A DNA stretch of 64,000 nucleotides from Burkholderia multivorans ATCC BAA-247 (lineage in GTDB: Bacteria > Pseudomonadota > Gammaproteobacteria > Burkholderiales > Burkholderiaceae). Location: the NCBI RefSeq assembly GCF_000959525.1, contig NZ_CP009832.1, forward strand, positions 1,860,001 to 1,924,000, in the 5' to 3' direction. The notes below the pieces were generated by a model. That model was not told where the DNA came from. It ran no database searches and saw nothing but the letters and a program-made list of their open reading frames with translations. The translations under genes and the position numbers were made by a program. This document shows, piece by piece, positions 21,657 through 42,907 of this stretch (position 1 is its first letter; every line of letters begins with the position of its first letter).

Positions 21657-21842
21657 CGCGCGCAGCACGGCGCGCGCCGTGACGAGACGGGACAGGGCGA
21701 CGAAACGGCCGCGCGCGGACGGCCTGCGAAATGGCGTGACATGACGGAGCGAAACGAAGCGCCCGTAGCGGGCGGATGACAACGCGCACACTCTCCGTCC
21801 CCCGCGGATCGGGCGTTCGGCGAGCGTGGCGCTCGCCCCTTG

Positions 21843-22018
21843 CGTCGGCCGGTATCCGGGCTGGCCGCTTGCCAGGCCGCAGCCTTCCCGCCCGCTGAGG
21901 GGCAGTGGCATCGTGGGCGGCATGGGCGCGTGCGCAAGGCGCGTCGCGCGGGCGGCGTACCGTTGCGGGGACAGCACAGGCCGGGCGATGCTCCGCCTCC
22001 TGTTTCCCGTTTAACTGC
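21843..22018 (-). promoter_or_regulatory. Cobalamin riboswitch (leader of cobA operon)
   Basis: Read on the minus strand the element starts with GCAGTTAAACGGGAAACAGG, continues with CTGTCCCCGCAACGG, the B12 box GCCACTGCCCC, GGGAAGGC, and ends with AGCCCGGATACCGGCC at 21862-21847. These blocks in this order are diagnostic for the adenosylcobalamin aptamer. It precedes cobA by about 190 bases, so it should lower expression of cobA-cobE-cobO-cbiA when B12 is plentiful. It is a mirror image of the riboswitch at 22170. Confidence 0.95.
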
Positions 22019-22169
22019 ATGCGCGGATTGCGCATGCGAGCACCGAACGCGGCGCATACGATAGCACAGGCCTCGCGCGCGATCGCGGCCGCCGTTCGCC
22101 TTGACGCGGCCGGGCGCCGGAGCCTACACTCGCACGCGTTTCGGTGCTCGCGCGTGCGTTCCTGCACGC

Positions 22170-22370
22170 GCAGTTAAACGGGAAACAGGGAGTGCGGCTG
22201 CCCCGCAGTCGAGCCAACCTGTGCTGCCCCCGCAACGGTAAGCGAACGCATCGCTCCGCGATGCAGCGCCGCTTCGCCGCATGCCACGCGCGTGCGGACG
22301 ACGCCACTGGATGCCTCGCGCTTCCGGGAAGGCGAAGCGGCGTGTTCGTCAGCCCGGATACCGGCCGAGA
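22170..22370 (+). promoter_or_regulatory. Cobalamin riboswitch (leader of NiCoT-cobW-cobN operon)
   Basis: Plus-strand aptamer with GCAGTTAAACGGGAAACAGG at its 5' end (near 22170), then GCTGCCCCCGCAACGG, the B12 box GCCACTGGATGC, GGGAAGGCG and the closing AGCCCGGATACCGGCC at 22351-22366. It lies 190 bases upstream of the cobalt/nickel transporter gene, so cobalt uptake and insertion should be turned down by B12. The first 20 bases are identical to those of the divergent riboswitch. Confidence 0.95.
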
Positions 22371-22555
22371 CGAGGGGTACAGCGCCGCGGGGAGGCGGCG
22401 CATCGTCCACGGCCGCAGCGCGCCCGACGCCCGAGCGTTTCCGATTTCCCGTCGTCAGGCCGCACGCGCGGTGCGAACCGGCAGGCAAGCGGCGCCGGCA
22501 GGCACGGTGCGGACCGTGTTGGCATTCACATGTCGACCGTTCATCGCGGAGCACC

Positions 22556-23614
22556 ATGCTCGATTCTTTCTTACGTCTGTTCAACGACAGCCCGTCGGGG
22601 CTGCGCGGCAAGATTGTCGCCATCTATTCGCTGCTCGTCGCGTTCAACGTCGGCGCGTGGATCTGGGCGTTCATCGCGTTTCGCGGGCAGCCGGTGCTGC
22701 TCGGCACCGCGCTGCTCGCGTATGTCTTCGGGCTGCGTCACGCCGTCGACGCGGACCATATCGCCGCCATCGACAACGTCACGCGCAAGCTCATGCAGGA
22801 AGGGCGCAGCCCGCTCGGCGCGGGGCTGTTCTTCTCGCTCGGGCACTCGACGGTCGTGATCGTGATGTCGGTCGCGGTTGCGCTGACCGCCGCGTCGCTC
22901 GCGCGCTTCGAGAGCATGAAGACGTGGGGCGGCGTGATCAGCACGAGCGTGTCCGCGTTCTTCCTGCTCGTGCTCGCGGCCGCGAACCTGCTGATCCTGA
23001 TCTCCGTGTACCGGACGTTTCGCGCGGCACGGCGCGGCGACGCGATCGTCGACGCCGATCTCGACATGCTGCTGAACCAGCGCGGCGTGCTCGCGCGCCT
23101 GTTCCGGCCGCTGTTCCGGCTCGTATCGCGCAGCTGGCACCTGTACCCGGTCGGCTTCCTGTTCGGCTTCGGCTTCGATACCGCGACCGAGATCGCGCTG
23201 TTCGGCATCTCCGCGACGCAGGTGCAGGGCGGGCTGTCGTTCTGGTCGGTGATGGCGCTGCCGGTGTTGTTCACCGCCGGCATGACGCTCGTCGACACGA
23301 CCGACGGCATCCTCATGATGGGCGCGTATCGCTGGGCGTACGTGCGGCCGATCCGCAAGATCTACTACAACATGACGATCACGCTCGTGTCGGTGCTGGT
23401 CGCCGCGCTGATCGGCGGCATCGAGGTGCTCGCGCTGCTCGCGGACAAGCTGTCGCTGCAGGGGCCGGTCTGGGATTTCGCGACGATGGTCGCGTCGCAT
23501 TTCGGCATGCTCGGCTACGTCGTGATCGGCCTGTTCGTCGCGTGCTGGGCCGTGTCGGCCGCGATCTACCGCTTCAAACGCTACGACGAGATCGACGTGA
23601 CGATCTCCGCGTGA
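22556..23614 (+). CDS. NiCoT-family nickel/cobalt permease
   Basis: Inner-membrane transporter, 352 aa, of the HoxN/NixA/NhlF family. The family signature HAVDADHIAAIDN lies near residue 61, with GFGFDTATEIALF near 205 and TAGMTLVDTTDG near 240, plus about eight hydrophobic segments. The ATG at 22556 was chosen because the open frame upstream is riboswitch sequence. Placement directly behind a cobalamin riboswitch and ahead of cobW and cobN indicates cobalt uptake for B12 synthesis rather than nickel supply. Confidence 0.92.
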   Translation: MLDSFLRLFNDSPSGLRGKIVAIYSLLVAFNVGAWIWAFIAFRGQPVLLGTALLAYVFGLRHAVDADHIAAIDNVTRKLMQEGRSPLGAGLFFSLGHSTVVIVMSVAVALTAASLARFESMKTWGGVISTSVSAFFLLVLAAANLLILISVYRTFRAARRGDAIVDADLDMLLNQRGVLARLFRPLFRLVSRSWHLYPVGFLFGFGFDTATEIALFGISATQVQGGLSFWSVMALPVLFTAGMTLVDTTDGILMMGAYRWAYVRPIRKIYYNMTITLVSVLVAALIGGIEVLALLADKLSLQGPVWDFATMVASHFGMLGYVVIGLFVACWAVSAAIYRFKRYDEIDVTISA

Positions 23615-23639: not shown

Positions 23640-24749
23640 ATGACCCTACGCAAGCTGCCCGTCACGATCGTCACGGGCTTTCTCGGCAGCGGCAAGACCA
23701 CGCTGATGCGCCACATCCTGCAGCAGGCGAACGGCCGCCGCATCGCGGTCATCGTCAACGAGTTCGGCGAACTCGGCATCGACGGCGAAATCCTGAAGGG
23801 CTGCGGCATCGGTTGCGACGACGCGGCCGGCGAGACGTCCGGGCAGCTCTACGAGCTCGCGAACGGCTGCCTCTGCTGCACCGTGCAGGAGGAGTTCTAT
23901 CCGGTGATGGAAGCGCTCCTCGAACGGCGCGCGGACATCGATCACGTGCTGATCGAAACCTCGGGCCTCGCGCTGCCGAAACCGCTCGTGCAGGCGTTCA
24001 ACTGGCCGACGATTCGCCATGCGTTTACGGTCGATGCGGTCGTGACCGTCGTCGACGGGCCCGCGGCCGCGAGCGGCCAGTTCGCGGAAAACCCGCAGGC
24101 CGTCGACGCGCAGCGGCGCGCGGATCCGAACCTCGATCACGAATCGCCGTTGCACGAGCTGTTCGCCGATCAGCTGTCGGCGGCCGATCTCGTGATCGTG
24201 AACAAGGCCGAGCTCGTCGACGACGCGCAGTTCGCGCAAATCGAAGCCGCGATCCGCGACGAGATCCCGCCGCAGGTGAAGATCGTGCGCGCGACGCGCG
24301 GCGAGCTCGATCTCGCGATGCTGATCGGGCTCGAATCGGCGTCCGAAGACACGATCCATTTGCGTCACGACCATCACGGTGCGACCGGCGTAGGTGCGAC
24401 CGGCGTAGGCTCGGCCGACGACGAAGAGCACGACCATCATCACGACGATTTCGATTCGGTCGTCGTGAGCGGCGACGCGGGCACGCGCGAGGCGACGATC
24501 GCCGCGCTGCAGCGGCTCGTCGAAACGCACACGATCTATCGCGCAAAGGGATTCGCGGCGTTGCCCGACGCGCCGATGCGGCTCGTGATCCAGGGCGTCG
24601 GCCGCCGCTTCGACAGCTATTTCGACCGCCGCTGGCAGGCCGGCGAAGCGCGCGCGAGCCGCTTCGTGCTGATCGGCGAACGGCTCGACGCGGCCGCGCT
24701 GCAACGCGCGTTCGACGCCGCGTGCGCGGTCGAGCCGCAGCAGGCGTAA
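23640..24749 (+). CDS. cobW: CobW GTPase (cobalt delivery chaperone)
   Basis: G3E-family P-loop GTPase, 369 aa. Motifs: GFLGSGKTTLMRHI near residue 13, the metal-binding CXCC in NGCLCCTV near 79, ETSGLALPKP near 105, NKAEL near 188, and a His-rich loop with HDHHG and HDHHHDDF around 242-272. Family members are thought to hand Co(II) to the CobN chelatase. A 15-base unit is tandemly duplicated at 24378-24407, giving the repeated peptide GATGV inside the His loop. It is 25 bases after the permease gene and 6 before cobN. Confidence 0.94.
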   Translation: MTLRKLPVTIVTGFLGSGKTTLMRHILQQANGRRIAVIVNEFGELGIDGEILKGCGIGCDDAAGETSGQLYELANGCLCCTVQEEFYPVMEALLERRADIDHVLIETSGLALPKPLVQAFNWPTIRHAFTVDAVVTVVDGPAAASGQFAENPQAVDAQRRADPNLDHESPLHELFADQLSAADLVIVNKAELVDDAQFAQIEAAIRDEIPPQVKIVRATRGELDLAMLIGLESASEDTIHLRHDHHGATGVGATGVGSADDEEHDHHHDDFDSVVVSGDAGTREATIAALQRLVETHTIYRAKGFAALPDAPMRLVIQGVGRRFDSYFDRRWQAGEARASRFVLIGERLDAAALQRAFDAACAVEPQQA

Positions 24750-24755
24750 CGCGCG

Positions 24756-27700
24756 ATGCATCTGCTGCGCACCACGCCGGGCGGCTTCGTCGACGACACA
24801 CAGGGTGTCGTGCGCATCGACCAGCGCCCGGCCGACATCGTGATCCTGAGCTCGGCCGACACGACGCTGTCGCTGCTCGCGAGCGTCGTACCGCGGCTGC
24901 CGGCCGGCTTTCCGAGCGTGCGGCTCGCGAACGTCACGTTCCTGCGACAGCCGGCCTCGGTCGACTTCTACGTCGACGACGTGCTGCGCCATGCGAAGAC
25001 GGTCGTGATCGACCATCTCGGCGGCGAGGCGTACTGGCCGTACGGCATCGAGCAGGCCGTTTCGGTCGCGTCGAAGCACGGGCAGCAGCTCGCGATGTTC
25101 TCCGGCGATTTGCAGGAAGATCCGAACCTCGTCGCGAAGAGCACGGTCGCGCCCGCGCTGTGCCGGCTGTGGTGGCGCTATCTGCGCGAGGGCGGCGTGC
25201 ACAACGCCGAAGCGCTGCTGCGCAGCATCGCGTTTCACACGCTCGGCTTCGGCGACGAGCCGGCGCCGCCGCGTCCGCTGCCGGCCGCCGCGCTGTATCA
25301 CCCGGCGCGCGATCCGGCGAGCGTCGACGATTGGCGGCCGCGCTGGACGCCGGGCGCGCCGGTCGTCGCGATCGTGTTCTATCGCGCGCACTGGCAGGCC
25401 GCGAATACGGCCGTGTTCGACGCGCTCGCCGACGCGCTCGTCGACGAAGGACTGAACCCGCTGCCGATCGCCGTGACGTCGCTGAAGGATGCGGTGAGCC
25501 GCGAGGTGATCGCGCAGCTCTGCGAGACGCACGACGTCGCGCTCGTGCTGAACACGACCGCGTTCGCGGCCGGTGCGATCGACGCGCACGCGCCCGACGT
25601 GCTTGCCGGCGACGCGCCGGTGCTGCAGGTGATCTTGTCGGGCGGCAACCGCGATGCGTGGGTCGCGGACAACCAGGGGCTCCACGCGCGCGACATCGCG
25701 ATGCACGTCGCATTGCCCGAGGTCGACGGGCGCATCGTCACGCGTGCGGTCAGCTTCAAGGGACTCGCGTATCGCTGCCCGCACACCGAGGTCGACGTCG
25801 TTCGCTACCAGCCCGATGCGGAGCGGATCGCGTTCGTCGCGGCGCTCGCGCGCGGCTGGTGCCGGCTGCGCACGCTCGACAACGCGGACAAGCGCATCGC
25901 ACTGATCCTCGCGAACTACCCGCAAAGCGACGGGCGCATCGGCAACGGCGTCGGGCTCGATACGCCGGCGTCCGCGCTGCATGTGCTCGCCGCGCTGCGC
26001 GGCGCCGGCTACACGCTCGCCGAGCTGCCGGCCGACGGCGACGCGCTGATCGCGCGCCTGACCGAAGGCGTGACCAACGATGCGGCCATGCATGCGCTGC
26101 GGCCGGCGTTCCAGAGCTATGCGCTCGACGATTACCGCGCACGCTCCGCGCGGCTGCCCGCCGCGGTGCGCGACGCGCTGAACGCGCGCTGGGGGCCGCC
26201 CGAAGCCGATCCGACGCTGCGCTGCGGACGCTTCACGATCGCGGGCTGGCGCGCGGGGCACGTGTTCGTCGGCATCCAGCCGTCGCGCTCGCGCGACGAC
26301 AACGATTACGCGAGCTATCACGACGCGGAGCTCGTGCCGCCGCACGCGTATCTCGCCTTCTATTTCTGGCTGCGCGACGTGTTCCGCATCGACGCGGTGA
26401 TCCATCTCGGCAAGCACGGCAACCTCGAATGGCTGCCGGGCAAGAGCGTCGCGCTGTCCGACGCGTGCTGGCCCGATCTGACGCTCGGCCCGCTGCCGCA
26501 TCTGTATCCGTTCATCGTCAACGATCCCGGCGAAGGCAGTCAGGCGAAGCGGCGTGCGCAGGCCGTGATCGTCGATCATCTGATGCCGCCGCTCACGCGC
26601 GCCGAAAACTACGGCCCGATGCAGGACCTCGAGCGGCTGGTCGACGAATACTACGACGCACTGATGGTCGACGCGCGACGCGCGAAGCTGCTGCGCAAGA
26701 CGATCCTCGCGACGATTGCCGAGCACCGGCTGCACGACGAGCTGAGCGTATCGCCGCCGCGCGACGCGAACGACGAGGACGCGCTGCTCACGCGTGTCGA
26801 CGCATGGCTCTGCGAGCTGAAGGAAGCGCAGATCCGCGACGGGCTGCACGTGTTCGGCGTGTCGCCGGCCGAGCGGCAGCGGCGCGATACGCTGCTCGCG
26901 CTCGCGCGCTTTCCGGTCGGGGACGGCAAAGGCGCGAACGCCGGACTGATCGCGGCACTCGCACGCGATCTCGCGCTCGGCGACGATTTCGATCCACTCG
27001 CGGCCGACTGGGCCGCGCCGTGGACGGGCCCGCGGCCGGCCGTGCTGCAGGCGCTCGACGCGTCGCCGTGGCGGCATGCGGGCGACACGCGCGAGCGGCT
27101 CGAACGGCTCGCGCAGCACTGGCTGGACCGCATCTGCGACGTCGCGCCGGACGAGGGCGGCATCGCCATCCCGCCGCCCGGCGAATGGCCGCATACGCTC
27201 GCGGTGATCGGGCGTGTGCAAACGACGCTGCTGCCCGCACTCGACGCGTGCGGCCGCGACGAAATGCGTCAGCTGCTGCGCGGGCTCGACGGCCGCTTCG
27301 TGCCGCCGGGGCCGAGCGGCTCGCCGTCGCGCGGCCGGCCGGACGTGCTGCCGACCGGCCGCAACTTTTACTCGGTCGACACGCGCTCGGTGCCGACGCA
27401 GGCCGCGTGGTCGCTCGGGCTCAAATCGGCGCAGCAGCTGATCGAGCGCCATCTGCAGGAGCACGGCGACTATCCGCGCGCGATCGGCCTGTCGGTGTGG
27501 GGCACCGCGACGATGCGCACCGGCGGCGACGATATCGCGCAGGCGTTCGCGCTGCTCGGCGTGCGGCCGAAATGGGCGCACGGCAGCCATCGCGTGACCG
27601 ACTTCGAGATCCTGCCGATCGAGATCTTCGATCGCCCGCGCATCGACGTGACGCTGCGCGTGTCGGGCTTTTTCCGCGACGCGTTCCCGAACCTCATGCA

Positions 27701-28565
27701 TCTGTTCGACGCGGCCGTGCAGGCCGTCGCCGCGCTCGACGAACCGGAGGCGCTGAACCCGATCCGCGCGCGCATCGAGCGCGAACGCGCGCAGTGGATC
27801 GCGCAAGGCGTCGCGCCCGACGAAGCGCGGCGCCGGGCCGGCTGGCGCGTATTCGGCGCGCGGCCCGGCAGCTACGGCGCGGGGCTGCAGGATCTGATCG
27901 ACCGGCGCGGCTGGCAGACCGACGCCGATCTCGCCGACGCATACCGCCGGTGGGGCGGCTACGCGTACGCGCAGAACAGTGCGGGCGATGCCGCGCCCGA
28001 CGTGTTCGGCGAACGGCTCGCCGCGATCGACGTCGTCGTGCAGAACCAGGACAGCCGCGAACACGACATCCTCGATTCGAACGACTACTACCAGTTCCAG
28101 GGCGGGATGACGGCGGCCGTGCGCCATTTGTCGGGGCAGCAGCCGAGCGTCTATCACGGCGACCACGCGAACCCCGCCGCGCCGAAGATGCGCACGCTGC
28201 GCGAGGAGATCGCGCGCGTGATCCGCTCGCGCGTCGTGAATCCGAAATGGCTCGACGGCGTGAAGCGGCACGGCTACAAGGGCGCGGCCGAAATGGCGGC
28301 GACCGTCGACTATCTGTACGGATACGACGCGACCGCGCGCGTGCTGTCCGATCACCAGTACGCGCTCGTCGCCGACACGTACCTGTTCGACGACGCGACG
28401 CGCGCGTTCCTCGAACGTCACAATCCGCACGCGCTGCACGCGATCTGCGAGCGCTTCGTCGAGGCGATGCAGCGCGGGCTGTGGCAGCAGCCGGGCGACT
28501 ATCGCGAGCGCATCGAAGCGGTCTGGCTCGCGACCGAACAACTTCAGGAAGGAGCACGGCGATGA
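24756..28565 (+). CDS. cobN: Cobaltochelatase subunit CobN
   Basis: Large subunit, 1269 aa, of the ATP-dependent aerobic cobalt chelatase, homologous to the ChlH/BchH magnesium chelatase subunit. The conserved IHLGKHGNLEWLPGK lies near residue 550, TRAENYGPMQDLERLVDEYYDA near 610, and GTATMRTGGDDIAQAF near 915. It inserts Co(II) into hydrogenobyrinic acid a,c-diamide. No CobS or CobT gene is present; the following ChlI/ChlD-type genes probably supply the AAA+ and VWA partners. Its stop overlaps the chlI start (ATGA). Confidence 0.95.
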   Translation: MHLLRTTPGGFVDDTQGVVRIDQRPADIVILSSADTTLSLLASVVPRLPAGFPSVRLANVTFLRQPASVDFYVDDVLRHAKTVVIDHLGGEAYWPYGIEQAVSVASKHGQQLAMFSGDLQEDPNLVAKSTVAPALCRLWWRYLREGGVHNAEALLRSIAFHTLGFGDEPAPPRPLPAAALYHPARDPASVDDWRPRWTPGAPVVAIVFYRAHWQAANTAVFDALADALVDEGLNPLPIAVTSLKDAVSREVIAQLCETHDVALVLNTTAFAAGAIDAHAPDVLAGDAPVLQVILSGGNRDAWVADNQGLHARDIAMHVALPEVDGRIVTRAVSFKGLAYRCPHTEVDVVRYQPDAERIAFVAALARGWCRLRTLDNADKRIALILANYPQSDGRIGNGVGLDTPASALHVLAALRGAGYTLAELPADGDALIARLTEGVTNDAAMHALRPAFQSYALDDYRARSARLPAAVRDALNARWGPPEADPTLRCGRFTIAGWRAGHVFVGIQPSRSRDDNDYASYHDAELVPPHAYLAFYFWLRDVFRIDAVIHLGKHGNLEWLPGKSVALSDACWPDLTLGPLPHLYPFIVNDPGEGSQAKRRAQAVIVDHLMPPLTRAENYGPMQDLERLVDEYYDALMVDARRAKLLRKTILATIAEHRLHDELSVSPPRDANDEDALLTRVDAWLCELKEAQIRDGLHVFGVSPAERQRRDTLLALARFPVGDGKGANAGLIAALARDLALGDDFDPLAADWAAPWTGPRPAVLQALDASPWRHAGDTRERLERLAQHWLDRICDVAPDEGGIAIPPPGEWPHTLAVIGRVQTTLLPALDACGRDEMRQLLRGLDGRFVPPGPSGSPSRGRPDVLPTGRNFYSVDTRSVPTQAAWSLGLKSAQQLIERHLQEHGDYPRAIGLSVWGTATMRTGGDDIAQAFALLGVRPKWAHGSHRVTDFEILPIEIFDRPRIDVTLRVSGFFRDAFPNLMHLFDAAVQAVAALDEPEALNPIRARIERERAQWIAQGVAPDEARRRAGWRVFGARPGSYGAGLQDLIDRRGWQTDADLADAYRRWGGYAYAQNSAGDAAPDVFGERLAAIDVVVQNQDSREHDILDSNDYYQFQGGMTAAVRHLSGQQPSVYHGDHANPAAPKMRTLREEIARVIRSRVVNPKWLDGVKRHGYKGAAEMAATVDYLYGYDATARVLSDHQYALVADTYLFDDATRAFLERHNPHALHAICERFVEAMQRGLWQQPGDYRERIEAVWLATEQLQEGARR

Positions 28566-29644
28566 GCGATCCGACCACGCCGCGCGCACGCGCGGTTTTT
28601 CCGTTTACGGCGCTGGTCGCGCAGGACGCGCTGCAGCAGGCGCTGCTGCTCGCCGCGATCGATCCGTCGATCGGCGGCGTGCTCGTCAGCGGGCCGCGCG
28701 GCACTGCGAAATCCACCGCCGCGCGGGCGCTCGCCGAGCTGCTGCCGGAAGGCGCGTTCGTCACGTTGCCGCTGTCGGCCACCGACGAGCAGGTCACCGG
28801 CACGCTCGATCTCGCGCATGCGCTCGCGGAGAACGGCGTGCGCTTTCGCGGCGGTCTGCTTGCGCGCGCGCATCGCGGCGTGCTCTACGTCGACGAGGTG
28901 AACCTGCTCGCCGACGGCCTCGTCGATACGCTGCTCGACGTCGCGGCGAGCGGCGTCAACGTCGTCGAGCGCGATGGCGTGTCGCACGCGCATGATGCGC
29001 GCTTCGTGCTGGTCGGCACGATGAATCCGGAAGAGGGCGAGCTGCGTCCGCAGCTGCTCGACCGCTTCGGGCTGATGGTCGAGCTCGAGAACTGCTTCGA
29101 TGCCGCGCAGCGCGAACGGATCGTGAAGGCGCGCCTCGCGTTCGACCTCGATCCCGACGCGTTTCGCGCCCGGCACGCGGATGCGCAGCAAACGCTCGCC
29201 GAGCGGATCCGCGCGGCGCGTGCACGGCTACCGGCACTGCAATTCGACGACGCGGTGCATGCGCGCGTGAGCGCGCTCTGCATCGAGGCGGCCGTCGACG
29301 GATTGCGCGCCGATCTCGTGATGTTGCGCGCGGCGCGTGCGCTTGCCGCGCTGGAAGCGGCCGACGCTGTGACGGTCGCGCATGTGGACCGCGTCGCGGA
29401 AGCGGTGCTGCGGCATCGGCGCCGCGCGGATGCATCGCCGCCGCCGGCTGCGCGCGCGCCCGATTCGCGCACGGGGCACGACGATGCGACGCATCGCGAC
29501 ACGCGCGAGCGCCTGCCGCTCGACACGGCGCCGTCGCCCGACGACGCGCCCGCATCGCACGGCGACTGGGGCTACCTGCCGCCGGAGTCCGCGGGGCTGC
29601 GCGACGTGAAGGCCGTCGTGCCGCTGCCGCTAAAAAAACGCTGA
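28562..29644 (+). CDS. chlI: ChlI-like AAA+ chelatase subunit (0-frame product of chlI/chlD)
   Basis: AAA+ ATPase of the magnesium/cobalt chelatase small-subunit type, 360 aa. Walker A SGPRGTAKST lies near residue 43, Walker B GVLYVDEVNLL near 107, and GTMNPEEGELRPQLLDRFG near 150. A Pro/Asp-rich tail follows from about residue 295, which looks like the linker of a ChlD protein and not a normal ChlI end. The reading frame stops right after a run of seven A (29632-29638), just before a strong hairpin, and the VWA domain continues in the -1 frame. This protein is therefore probably the short product of a frameshifted gene. Confidence 0.9.
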   Translation: MSDPTTPRARAVFPFTALVAQDALQQALLLAAIDPSIGGVLVSGPRGTAKSTAARALAELLPEGAFVTLPLSATDEQVTGTLDLAHALAENGVRFRGGLLARAHRGVLYVDEVNLLADGLVDTLLDVAASGVNVVERDGVSHAHDARFVLVGTMNPEEGELRPQLLDRFGLMVELENCFDAAQRERIVKARLAFDLDPDAFRARHADAQQTLAERIRAARARLPALQFDDAVHARVSALCIEAAVDGLRADLVMLRAARALAALEAADAVTVAHVDRVAEAVLRHRRRADASPPPAARAPDSRTGHDDATHRDTRERLPLDTAPSPDDAPASHGDWGYLPPESAGLRDVKAVVPLPLKKR

Positions 29645-29692
29645 GCCATCGAGACGGCGCCGCCGCGAACGCCGTTCGCGGTCCTCGATGGC
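29632..29692 (+). promoter_or_regulatory. Programmed -1 frameshift signal (slippery A7 and hairpin)
   Basis: The 0-frame reads A AAA AAA C at 29632-29639, a perfect slippery heptamer, followed by the chlI stop TGA at 29642-29644. After a 6-base spacer an RNA hairpin starts: GCCATCGAG (29645-29653) pairs with CTCGATGGC (29684-29692), and inside it CCGCGAAC (29663-29670) pairs with GTTCGCGG (29674-29681). Slippage by -1 leads directly into the VWA frame. Frameshifting in chlD-type chelatase genes is, to my recollection, a reported phenomenon; its use here is inferred from these elements. Confidence 0.82.
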
Positions 29693-30321
29693 AGCAGGGT
29701 GCCGCCCGGCGCGTGCCGGGCCTCGCGCGCGCGGGCACGGCCGTCGCGTGGGCGGCCACGCTCGCCGCCAAGCGCGGGCAGCCGCTGCACGCCGCGCATC
29801 TGCGCTTTCGCCAACGCGCGGATGCGCCGCGCGCACTCCATTGCTTCGTGCTCGACTGCTCGGCGTCGATGCTGTCGCACGATCGGCTCGCGCTCGCGAA
29901 GGGGCTGATCGTCGCGTTTTTCGATCGCGCCGCGCGCGACCGGATGGAGACCGCGCTGATCTGTTTCGGCGGCAGCGGCGCCGCGCGGCGCTTCGGACCG
30001 GCCGTGCCGCGCTGGTGGAATGCGCGCTGGGTCGAGCCGGTCGATGGCGGCGGCGGAACGCCGCTCGCGGACGGCATCGCCGCCGCGGCGCAGCTGCTCG
30101 CGCGCGACGCGCGACGTCACGCGGACAAGCAGCGCTGGCTGTGGGTGCTGTCCGACGGACGCACGCGGGAGACACCGGCGAAGCCCGCCGCGGCCGATCA
30201 CGTCGTGTTCGTCGACTTCGACGATGCGCCGGTGCGGCTCGGACAGGGCGCACGGCTCGCGCGCGCGTGGGGCGCGCAGTGGGTGACGGCCGATGCGCTT
30301 TGCGCGGACGTGCGCGGCTGA
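29638..30321 (+). CDS. chlD: ChlD-like VWA domain (-1 frame continuation of chlI/chlD)
   Basis: Von Willebrand A domain segment of the chelatase medium subunit. It has the MIDAS motif DCSAS (nt 29860-29874), GGGGTPLADG near 30050 and a LSDGRTRE segment near 30149. The frame is open from 29638 and has no ATG with a ribosome site. The only in-frame candidate close by is a GTG at 29713, which would cut into the ARRVPGLARAG segment at the domain's N-terminus. Read as a -1 frameshift continuation it completes a fusion of about 586 aa (AAA+, linker, VWA), the standard ChlD layout. Independent initiation at 29713 would give 202 aa. Confidence 0.85.
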   Translation, partial: TLSHRDGAAANAVRGPRWQQGAARRVPGLARAGTAVAWAATLAAKRGQPLHAAHLRFRQRADAPRALHCFVLDCSASMLSHDRLALAKGLIVAFFDRAARDRMETALICFGGSGAARRFGPAVPRWWNARWVEPVDGGGGTPLADGIAAAAQLLARDARRHADKQRWLWVLSDGRTRETPAKPAAADHVVFVDFDDAPVRLGQGARLARAWGAQWVTADALCADVRG

Positions 30322-30420
30322 GCGCGGGCGAACGCGGTGGCGAACGGATCGGTTCGTGCGCGCGAGGCCGACGCACGGCGTGCGCTATGATCGTCACTCG
30401 TCTCCAATGGAAATTCCGCC

Positions 30421-30873
30421 ATGCAAGTGCTCGTCGATGCCGACGCGTGTCCCGCCGTCATCAAGGAGATGCTGTTTCGCGCCGCGCGGCGCACCGAGAT
30501 CTGCGTGACGCTGGTCGCGAACCAGTTTCTGCGTACGCCGCCGTCGCCGTTCATTCGCGCGCTGCAGGTGCCGGCCGGCTTCGACGCGGCGGACGCGCGG
30601 ATCGTCGAGCTGGCCGCGGCGGGCGACCTCGTGATCACGGCCGACATTCCGCTCGCGGCAGCCGTGCTCGACAAGGGCGCATTTGCGCTCGATCCGCGCG
30701 GAAACTGGTTCAGCCGCGACAACATCGAAGAACGTCTGTCGACGCGCGCGATGATGGATCAGCTGCGCAGCGCGGGCATCGATACCGGTGGCCCGGCGCC
30801 GTTCAGCGCACGCGACGGCAACGCGTTCGCGGCCCAGCTCGACCGGTTTCTCGCACGGCGCCGCGGGCCGTAA
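30421..30873 (+). CDS. yaiI: YaiI/YqxD family (UPF0178) protein
   Basis: Protein of 150 aa with the hallmark N-terminus of the family: [16 protein letters not shown], then VTLVANQF near residue 38 and [13 protein letters not shown] near 70, followed by a conserved [17 protein letters not shown] segment. The fold belongs to the PIN-like superfamily, but no function is established. It stands alone 100 bases after chlD; a possible -10 hexamer TATGAT lies at 30386-30391. Confidence 0.9.
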
Positions 30874-40942: not shown

Positions 40943-42425
40943 CGGTGGTGTCCTGGCTGGAGTCGTGGCCGTGCCGCGTGCGCGCAATCAGCGCCGCGGC
41001 GCGGTCGATCGTCAGATGGTGGGCGAGCGCGATGCCCGGCGAGGCCGCCGCGACATCGCGCCGATACAGGTCGTAGCGCGCCGGCGCGACCGCGACGAGC
41101 GTATGCGCAGCCGTGCGCGGCAGTGCGCAATGCCGCTCGCAGCCGCTCAGATGCACGTCGACCGGCCGGCCGACATGCGCGGCGAGTGCGAGCGCGTCGC
41201 GTTTCGTGTCGGCGCGCGCTTTCGCGCAGCCCGTGCTGCCCGCGCACGCGACGAGCATCGCGCGCGGATCGGACGGCGCGCAGACGAGACCGAGCGCCGC
41301 CAGCGCCTCGAGCACGGCCGGCGCCTGCGCGTGCGCGACGCCGTGCACGAACACGCCTTGCCACGGCGTCATCGTCAGCGTGCCGTCGCCGTATGCATCG
41401 GCCAGTGCCGCGAGCCGGTCCAGTTGCGCGGCATCGAGCCGTCCGAGCGCGAACTGCGCGCCGACGCTGCAGCGCGACGCGTCGACCGACGCGCGCGCAC
41501 CGAAGCGCCACGCGGGATCGGACGGCGCACGCCGCCAGCGGGCCAGCGCGGGATCGGCAGTCAGCGCGAAGGGCAGGTCGTGCTGCGCGCGCGTCAGCAG
41601 CGCAGGTTCGCCGCGCGCGGCGAGCAGCGTACGCATCCGCGTGACGTCGGCCGGTGCAAGATCGAGAAACGCATGCAGCAGCGCGCGAACGAATGCGACC
41701 GTATGCTCGGGCGCCACGTCGACTGCCGCGGGGGCGTCGTCGCGCGAAGTCGGCGGACAGCCGGCGAGGCCGGCCGCGATGCGCGTCGCGCCGTCGTCGC
41801 GGCGCCACGCGGCGAGCCAGATGTCGTGCGGATGATCGAGCGCGGCGACCGATTCGCCGCCATCGAACTGGATCGAGAATTTCGGCGACAGCTCGCCGCG
41901 GCGCGGGTCCGTCGCGAGCAGATCGAGCAGCGGCGCGGCGAACGCGCGGCTGTCGACGAGCGCCGCGCGATCGTGACCGGCGAGCGGGCTCAGCATCAGG
42001 TTGCGTGCATCGTCGCTCGCGGCCAGCGCGGCTGCCTCGTCGAGCCCGCGCGGCTCGGCCGCGTGCGGGCCGAGCCGCGCATCGAGCAAGGCGCGCACGA
42101 GCGCGTCGGCCGCGCCGTCGCGGATCCCGCGTAACTGAAGGTTCGCGCGATTGGTCGCGTCGATCGCGCCGGAACCGTACCTGCGCGCGGCGGCGGCGAT
42201 CGCGCGTGCCTGGCTCGCGTCGAGCCGGCCGCCCGGCAGCTTGATCCGGCACAGTCCGCCGTCGGCGGCCGCCACGATGCGCACGAGCCCCGGACACGCC
42301 GACGGGCGCGCGACAGGCGACGCGGTAAACGGAACGGAGAAGGCGGGACTCAACGGGGCACCGGGACAGTGTCGCGCCGCGGCCAACGCATCGGTACACC
42401 CCGCCCGACGCCGGCTGGCACGCAC
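40935..42425 (-). CDS. cobG: Precorrin-3B synthase CobG
   Basis: Nitrite/sulfite-reductase-like oxygen-dependent monooxygenase, up to 496 aa, that forms the C20 hydroxyl and gamma-lactone of precorrin-3B. Substrate-side motif CPGLVRIVAAADGGLCRIKLPGGR-like near residue 44, and Fe-S ligands in CAGSTGCAKAR near 395 and GCERHCALP near 429. The start is uncertain: the listed GTG lies only 8 bases from the end of the riboswitch aptamer, and in-frame TTG codons at residues 14 and 25 are alternatives. First gene of the (-) operon. Its presence marks the aerobic route. Confidence 0.88.
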   Translation of the reverse strand: MRASRRRAGCTDALAAARHCPGAPLSPAFSVPFTASPVARPSACPGLVRIVAAADGGLCRIKLPGGRLDASQARAIAAAARRYGSGAIDATNRANLQLRGIRDGAADALVRALLDARLGPHAAEPRGLDEAAALAASDDARNLMLSPLAGHDRAALVDSRAFAAPLLDLLATDPRRGELSPKFSIQFDGGESVAALDHPHDIWLAAWRRDDGATRIAAGLAGCPPTSRDDAPAAVDVAPEHTVAFVRALLHAFLDLAPADVTRMRTLLAARGEPALLTRAQHDLPFALTADPALARWRRAPSDPAWRFGARASVDASRCSVGAQFALGRLDAAQLDRLAALADAYGDGTLTMTPWQGVFVHGVAHAQAPAVLEALAALGLVCAPSDPRAMLVACAGSTGCAKARADTKRDALALAAHVGRPVDVHLSGCERHCALPRTAAHTLVAVAPARYDLYRRDVAAASPGIALAHHLTIDRAAALIARTRHGHDSSQDTTDD

Positions 42426-42432
42426 GCACTTT

Positions 42433-42600
42433 CAGGCCGGCAGGTCTCCTGGCTGACAGGTCGGCGCCTGCTCCCGGCCTTCCCGGTGAAACCAGTGGCA
42501 TGAGGGGGAGATCGGCTCGCTGTCTACAGTTGCGGGGGCAGCCACAGCGGCGCGATGCGCCCTGTGTTCCCTCTTCGGCCCCGAAGGGCACCGGCGAACG
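42433..42600 (-). promoter_or_regulatory. Cobalamin riboswitch (leader of cobG operon)
   Basis: Minus-strand aptamer with GGTGCCC, GAGGGAACACAGGG, CTGCCCCCGCAACTGT, the B12 box TGCCACTGG, CCGGGAAGGCC, and the closing AGCCAGGAGACCTGCC at 42449-42434. The aptamer ends almost on the first possible cobG start codon, which points to control at translation initiation or to a later start. It is a different sequence variant from the two riboswitches near 22 kb. Confidence 0.94.
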
Positions 42601-42907
42601 AACGCGCGTAGGATACCCGATTTCGCGGGCGGGCCACGACCCGAAAACCGTGCGGCGGCACGTGGACGGCAGCGCCGCCGTGCCGAAGCCGTTCTTCCGT
42701 CGCCGGACGGCGAACGCCGTGCGCTCGTCGCGGATATTTCATCGGCTCAATCTTCATCGGCCGAATCGGCCGCGCGCCGAATCGCCGGCATGCGCGAAGC
42801 GCCGTCCGGGCTGCCGATGAAACGCGGAGTCGAACACGGTACTATCCCGTCTTTGGCGATGCAGACCGGTACGCGGCGGCAACAGGACGAACGATGGGGA
42901 AGGGTGC

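What the first reader, a model, noticed from the sequence alone, without database searches (positions are those of the whole stretch)
29632..29692. Complete -1 frameshift signal joins the ChlI-like ATPase to the ChlD-like VWA domain
The 0-frame runs A AAA AAA (29632-29638), stops three bases later, and after a 6-base spacer a two-tiered hairpin begins (9-bp outer stem 29645-29653/29684-29692, 8-bp inner stem 29663-29670/29674-29681). The -1 frame is open from the slippery site to 30321 and contains the VWA domain, which has no good start of its own. The short product has a ChlD-like acidic linker tail. One gene could thus supply both the small (ChlI) and medium (ChlD) partners of CobN; no separate cobS/cobT is in the window. 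Such frameshifting in chlD genes has been described, as far as I recall, so the novelty lies in this complete signal. Slippage by RNA polymerase on the A7 run is an alternative.
Basis: partly seen in the sequence, partly recalled or inferred. Interest (0 to 1): 0.85.

Follow-up and report, generated by a model that had tools for sequence, protein, structure and literature searches.

The report
Ribosomal frameshift in a cobalt-chelatase gene
A vitamin-B12 gene in a Burkholderia bacterium carries a strongly conserved signal that very probably makes some ribosomes slip back one base, so that one gene yields a short and a long protein; this trick is already published for this gene family.

Summary
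It is conserved far beyond chance: in 115 of 115 unique split junctions the heptamer A_AAA_AAR has the same codon phase and lies one codon before the stop (eight loci left out, see Tried and rejected), and the stem covaries. A -1 ribosomal frameshift is by far the best explanation; polymerase slippage, internal initiation and sequencing error are disfavoured. It is not new: a 2013 study placed Burkholderia in this very -1 magnesium-chelatase cluster and measured 63, 40 and 10% shifting in E. coli for three cassettes. Two corrections. The genome, unlike the window, has a CobS/CobT-like pair; over 120 family genomes CobS-like presence does not follow CobN, while the ChlI-like gene does. And uninterrupted fusions exist; the 12 examined showed no separate ChlI gene, so two products are not obligatory for the family. 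What the ratio is for stays open.

The parts
22125..22383 (+). cobalamin riboswitch upstream of the nickel/cobalt transporter - cobW - cobN - chlI/D gene row
   Evidence: Rfam RF00174, 63.1 bits; that it governs the row is inference from order and strand
22292..23614 (+). HoxN/HupN/NixA family nickel/cobalt transporter ORF as listed; the domain starts about 140 residues in, so the true start is probably later
   Evidence: TIGR00802, 400.5 bits
23640..24749 (+). cobW metallochaperone GTPase
   Evidence: TIGR02475 478.7 bits, cut-off 332.1
24756..28565 (+). cobN, large cobaltochelatase subunit; the only CobN/ChlH family match in the genome; its TGA overlaps the next ATG (ATGA)
   Evidence: TIGR02257 1590.9 bits
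28562..29644 (+). 0-frame ORF, ChlI-like AAA+ ATPase with linker, 360 aa: the short product
   Evidence: TIGR02442 378 bits; TIGR02030 335.6 bits
29632..29638 (+). slippery heptamer A_AAA_AAA
   Evidence: A_AAA_AAR in 115 of 115 unique split junctions, window included
29642..29644 (+). 0-frame stop TGA, one codon after the heptamer
   Evidence: TGA (89) or TAG (26) with the heptamer at the same distance in 115 of 115
29645..29692 (+). two-tier stimulatory hairpin: outer 29645-29653/29684-29692, inner 29663-29670/29674-29681
   Evidence: covariation
29632..30321 (+). -1 frame, 229 codons from the heptamer: linker plus VWA (ChlD-type) domain, reached by the frameshift

Best explanation
This is a programmed -1 ribosomal frameshift site of the known fs-chlD type. 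Most ribosomes end at TGA 29642 and release a 360-aa ChlI-like ATPase. A fraction pauses on the hairpin, both tRNA-Lys slip back one base on A_AAA_AAA, and reading goes on in the -1 frame through the VWA domain, giving a ChlD-like long form of 586 aa (arithmetic only; the frames were not joined). Short and long forms then serve as the motor and adaptor partners of the neighbouring CobN in late cobalt insertion. Shown here: anatomy, conservation, covariation, gene neighbourhood. Inferred from published assays on relatives: that slippage happens, and its rate. Inferred only: that both forms assemble with CobN.
For: Heptamer phase and one-codon distance to the stop invariant in 115 of 115 unique split junctions. 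First Lys codon AAA in 115 of 115 while AAG prevails upstream in the same genes (299 AAG, 111 AAA); the preceding codon encodes seven different residues but ends in A in 115 of 115, against 1018 of 15533 codons of six fourfold boxes upstream. Stem, 41 distinct rows: 98.1% of outer-helix cells paired, 8 of 17 pairs with changes on both sides (shuffled mean 5.4), covariation score 0.324 against 0.145 shuffled and at most 0.133 when slid. In L019 the -1 frame opens only 16 nt before the end of the 0-frame stop, a stretch that holds the heptamer. Cassettes of this family shift 63, 40 and 10% in E. coli, the last with A7. The ChlI-like part is found in 56 of 57 CobN genomes and in none without CobN, of 120.
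Against: No assay on this sequence. Fold energy alone is modest (z -2.3). In one search one of five measures, further standard pair types, does not exceed the shuffles (24 against 22.6; 142 of 500 as high), and the inner helix is less conserved (84.8% paired; its two top pairs fail in 19 and 27 of 41 rows). The genome holds another CobS/CobT-like pair. Uninterrupted relatives seem to do without a second product, so the need for both subunits is not proven.
Confidence: 0.92

Rival explanations
1. RNA polymerase slips on the A-run and makes mRNAs with an extra A, which put the VWA in frame.
Against: Slippage by polymerase does not depend on codon phase, yet phase is invariant in 115 of 115; 36 of 115 have A6G, only 2 of them among the 73 Burkholderiaceae-range rows: a shorter run but still a ribosomal slippery site; a covarying hairpin sits 6 nt downstream. 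That A7 is short for efficient polymerase slippage is recalled, not tested.
Confidence: 0.04
2. The VWA protein is started separately (GTG 29713 or another start) by coupling to the upstream stop; no fusion is made.
For: GTG at codon 27 of the -1 frame exists here and in several Burkholderia rows; 62 of 113 rows have at least one ATG, GTG or TTG before the conserved motif.
Against: In 51 of 113 rows where the conserved W..TL motif before the VWA was found (115 examined) there is no ATG, GTG or TTG between heptamer and motif, 28 of them in the Burkholderiaceae range; it does not explain the heptamer.
Confidence: 0.03
3. Sequencing error or a decayed gene.
For: None found for this gene. One relative, L026, has a VWA frame broken further on.
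Against: The same split is seen in 49 of the 55 family loci read and in 74 of the 80 loci; in 72 of these 74 the heptamer stands at the exact distance from the stop, L036 and L039 were read by eye. Both frames are conserved at protein level.
Confidence: 0.01
4. The real CobN partners are the CobS/CobT-like pair on contig C2, and the split gene has another role.
For: CobS-like 534.9 bits against a cut-off of 558.55; CobT-like next to it.
Against: CobS-like gene in 36 of 120 family genomes, 20 with CobN and 16 without (Fisher p 0.32); only 3 of 11 same-genus genomes have it though all 11 have CobN. Of the eight other ORFs scanned beside it none matched a cobalamin family; two matched nothing, the rest include a molybdopterin oxidoreductase, an Fe-S protein, a GABA permease and an IclR-type regulator.
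Confidence: 0.08

Closest known systems
fs-chlD / magnesium-chelatase cluster of frameshifted genes (Antonov 2013, PMC3711429; Kuznetsov 2022, PMC9227772; Antonov 2020, msaa081, not held)
   Same: -1 direction and A-run slippery site, ChlI-like part then VWA part, Burkholderia named as a member genus; downstream structure and role as source of both CobN partners; A_AAA_AAR.
   Different: Nothing essential. The Burkholderiaceae stem is two-tier and covaries; the 2016 review says the structure's sequence is not strongly conserved and suggests a triplex from the purine/pyrimidine bias of a Pseudomonas stem, whereas the 5' arm here is mixed (0.44 pyrimidine).
E. coli dnaX frameshift
   Same: A_AAA_AAG tandem-slippage site; hairpin a few bases downstream (recalled).
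   Different: In dnaX the 0-frame gives the long product and the shift the short one (recalled); here the reverse. No Shine-Dalgarno-like stimulator was established here.
CobS/CobT of the classical aerobic cobaltochelatase
   Same: Same two roles, AAA+ motor and VWA adaptor (roles as in passages).
   Different: Separate genes of different subfamilies; the split gene matches the ChlI/ChlD-type models TIGR02442, TIGR02030 and TIGR02031, all below their whole-protein cut-offs, each half being scanned alone.

Membership tests
fs-chlD (programmed -1 frameshift) | A_AAA_AAR heptamer in the 0-frame phase close to the 0-frame stop | tested here: met
fs-chlD (programmed -1 frameshift) | downstream stimulatory RNA structure conserved by covariation | tested here: met
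   42 of 73 Burkholderiaceae-range rows aligned, 41 distinct; all 115 rows: outer 8 pairs complete in 102, 7 of 8 in 13; base-shuffled sequence reaches 8 in 4.6% and 7 in 30.5%
fs-chlD (programmed -1 frameshift) | ChlI-like AAA+ part in one frame and VWA part in the -1 frame | tested here: met
fs-chlD (programmed -1 frameshift) | CobN present and no separate ChlI-type small subunit gene | tested here: met
   (TIGR02030 at E 1e-15: only the split gene); but a CobS-like gene exists elsewhere in the genome
fs-chlD (programmed -1 frameshift) | both products made, with measurable shift efficiency | not testable with these tools
   only published cassettes of the cluster; which species gave the A7 cassette was not seen
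Aerobic (late cobalt insertion) B12 pathway | late-insertion genes and other corrin-ring genes near by | tested here: met
   cobW, cobN; precorrin-3B C17-methyltransferase domain, precorrin-2 C20-methyltransferase, precorrin-8X methylmutase, CbiE and CbiT domains, all over a cut-off; three cobalamin riboswitches in 20000-50000. cobG and the rest of the pathway were not searched
Classical CobS/CobT | match to the CobS (TIGR01650) or CobT (TIGR01651) model | tested here: not met
   neither model is among the matches of the split gene's two halves at E 0.001

The most novel reading that the evidence does not exclude
The fixed short/long ratio, not the mere supply of two subunits, is what the signal is kept for, and it may be tuned (for instance by cobalt or translation state). 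Uninterrupted relatives with no separate ChlI would then work with one chain in both roles, or make the short form after translation. The conserved phase, spacing and covarying stem suggest that efficiency itself is under selection.
Probability: 0.2. Interest if true: 0.6.

Novelty: already known. Interest (0 to 1): 0.27.

Why it matters
A gene caller that does not know the shift would cut this cobaltochelatase gene in two and miss the medium subunit. The work gives base-level conservation and covariation for Burkholderiaceae. The contrast of split and uninterrupted relatives, none with a separate ChlI among those checked, makes the question why a frameshift is kept directly testable.

Tried and rejected
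Polymerase slippage, internal initiation, sequencing error and the C2 CobS/CobT pair as true CobN partner were tested and set aside (see rivals). I looked for a slippery site in the 12 uninterrupted relatives that might yield a short form as in dnaX: none is conserved; heptamers of the kinds searched (X_XXY_YYZ with Y = A or T) are scattered in nine of the 12 and absent from three (L060, L145, L146). A Shine-Dalgarno-like element before the heptamer was considered from the listing (AGG CCG CTN in many non-Burkholderia rows) but not tested; it looks like a coded R-P-L motif. The window's junction has no megablast match in the plasmid collection (records of the own genome may be left out there). 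The promoter and terminator scan of 28400-30500 found one terminator-like site, at 28579-28596, none at the junction. The species was not identified beyond the genus, which rests on nearest relatives.

Limits and rows dropped before counts: one search kept the best 80 of 489 confirmed loci, so more distant relatives are not represented; saw 120 genomes drawn evenly from a larger family group. Of window plus 80 loci, eight were left out of the junction table: the six uninterrupted L041, L042, L049, L060, L062, L066; L036, whose 0-frame is interrupted upstream though heptamer and stop are visible; and L039, where A_AAA_AAA stands two codons before the stop. Adding 49 family loci gave 122 rows, 115 after identical 130-nt junctions were removed; near-copies remain, so counts are not independent events. 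The covariation alignment used 42 of 73 Burkholderiaceae-range rows; 31 with other loop lengths or hairpin layouts were left out, and that range includes at least one non-member (L031, Comamonadaceae). Completeness of the six marine genomes (G120-G125) was not told.

Full report
What is there. In the window the row riboswitch (22125-22383) - nickel/cobalt transporter - cobW - cobN - split chlI/chlD gene lies on the + strand. cobN ends in an ATGA overlap with the ATG of the split gene at 28562, with AAGGAG just upstream. The first frame encodes a 360-aa ChlI-like AAA+ protein and stops at 29642; the -1 frame carries the VWA domain to 30321.

Is it more than chance? The hairpin's energy alone is moderate (z -2.3, 5 of 200 shuffles as good). 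Conservation is decisive. The 80 loci (the best 80 of 489) were chosen by the first-frame protein, not by the junction. In 74 of 80 the VWA part lies in the -1 frame; six marine gammaproteobacterial genes are uninterrupted. In 72 of those 74 the heptamer is A_AAA_AAR one codon before the stop; L039 has A_AAA_AAA two codons before the stop, and L036 shows heptamer and stop but an interrupted upstream frame. In 120 genomes of the family, 56 have the first-frame part. Of these, the window and 49 others are split with A_AAA_AAR (the 49: 47 A7, 2 A6G), and six are not split, namely long fusions of another branch; in three of these six (L145, L147, L149) the VWA half gave no tblastn match and was recognised by eye in the uninterrupted translation.

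Signature of selection on the heptamer. Among 115 unique junctions the codon before the two lysines is Ala, Pro, Leu, Ser, Val, Thr or Glu, yet always ends in A; the first Lys codon is always AAA, the second AAA (79) or AAG (36). Upstream in the same genes only 1018 of 15533 codons of six fourfold boxes end in A, and AAG outnumbers AAA 299 to 111. In ten ORFs of the window CCA is 3 of 263 Pro codons and CTA 3 of 459 CTN Leu codons.

Signature of selection on the stem. Without alignment, eight bases that begin at the first or second base after the stop find a complete partner arm in 102 of 115 rows and 7 of 8 pairs in the other 13; base-shuffled downstream sequence reaches 8 in 4.6% and 7 in 30.5%. 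On an alignment of 42 Burkholderiaceae-range rows (41 distinct), 91.8% of cells pair (82.5% shuffled), 83 cells have changes on both sides (25.7 shuffled, 0 of 500 as high), and slid registers pair 23 to 49%; the count of further pair types is not above the shuffles (24 against 22.6). The outer helix is the firm part (98.1%); the tip of the inner helix is not conserved.

Mechanism. Invariant codon phase argues for tandem tRNA slippage and against polymerase slippage, for which phase is irrelevant. Start codons between heptamer and VWA are absent in 51 of 113 rows with a recognisable W..TL motif (115 examined), which argues against separate initiation as the general route; in the window a GTG at 29713 exists. 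In L019 the -1 frame opens only 16 nt before the end of the 0-frame stop, so there the shift must fall in a short stretch that holds the heptamer. Published cassettes of this cluster shifted 63% (11 A), 40% (9 A) and 10% (7 A) in E. coli (PMC3711429, section read), so about 10% is a reasonable guess here; the source species of the A7 cassette was not seen.

Function. The only CobN/ChlH family match in the genome is the neighbour, and the first-frame family and CobN co-occur almost perfectly (56 of 57 CobN genomes; none without CobN). No second ChlI gene was found (TIGR02030, E 1e-15) in this genome or in the other split-gene genomes checked: seven of seven, namely G000, G011, G096, G126-G129, where second matches fall in the same gene. 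Against the simplest story, the genome carries a CobS/CobT-like pair on contig C2. The CobS-like gene is absent from 8 of 11 same-genus genomes, its presence is independent of CobN over 120 genomes (20 with, 16 without; Fisher p 0.32), and none of eight other ORFs scanned beside the pair matched a cobalamin family; an IclR-type regulator lies beside it in four of eleven relative genomes looked at (L118 and L153, L119-L121, L123, L117 and L152, L122 and L154, L124, L151; match in L118/L153, L122/L154, L124, and in the own genome). I think the pair serves another client, but this is inference. Also against the simplest story, 12 of 12 uninterrupted relatives lie in genomes where the ChlI model finds no second gene, and 11 of 12 lack a CobS-like match (at E 1e-40, at E 1e-15; G123 has one); for six of these genomes completeness was not told. 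So a single chain appears sufficient in those branches, and the frameshift may be about ratio. On a tree of 47 first-frame domains the split and uninterrupted states need two changes; the marine uninterrupted clade groups beside Pseudomonas split genes with moderate support (89/86), which would fit a loss of the frameshift there, but the root is not established.

Comparison with what is known. The family was reported in 2013 with Burkholderia named among six genera (PMC3711429: passages, one section), reviewed in 2016 (PMC5009743: passages, one section) and developed into fs-chlD as source of both CobN partners in 2020 (not held; cited, content otherwise recalled) and 2022 (PMC9227772: parts 1-3 of 4 read; the word Burkholderia does not occur in it by the listing). 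PMC7689651 and PMC7242693 were seen as passages only. The listings showed me no paper on stem covariation in Burkholderiaceae or on the coexisting CobS/CobT-like pair, but those searches were not aimed at covariation and the library is limited. The triplex idea of the 2016 review does not extend to the window's stem, whose 5' arm is mixed.

Verdict. A well-built frameshift site of an already known kind, in a genus already listed; the added value is base-level conservation, covariation, and the two corrections to the simple one-gene-two-subunits story.

Noticed in passing
G000:C2:1019488-1022117 (L086:9177-12184): CobS/CobT-like gene pair, below the curated cut-offs, next to an IclR-type regulator and near a molybdopterin oxidoreductase; CobS-like patchy in the family (36 of 120 genomes) and independent of CobN. 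Client unknown.
   Followed up: partly
window 21830-22063 (-), 22125-22383 (+), 42422-42610 (-): Three cobalamin riboswitches (RF00174) in the 20000-50000 stretch scanned, two of them back to back.
   Followed up: no
L041, L042, L049, L060, L062, L066 and L145-L150: Uninterrupted ChlI-VWA fusions with no separate ChlI found in their genomes and no conserved slippery site.
   Followed up: partly
G002, G084, G065, G102, G043 (genus g3 of the family): Further CobN-like large subunits of about 915-985 bits besides or instead of the CobN of about 1330-1350 bits; G043 has only such a one plus a CobS-like gene and no ChlI-like match.
   Followed up: no
L026 (Cupriavidus basilensis OR16): Intact heptamer and stem, but the VWA frame is broken further downstream: assembly error or decay.
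   Followed up: no
window 23813-29644 (+): The ChlI frame is open for 1943 codons, back across cobN, probably because of high GC content; not a gene upstream of 28562.
   Followed up: no
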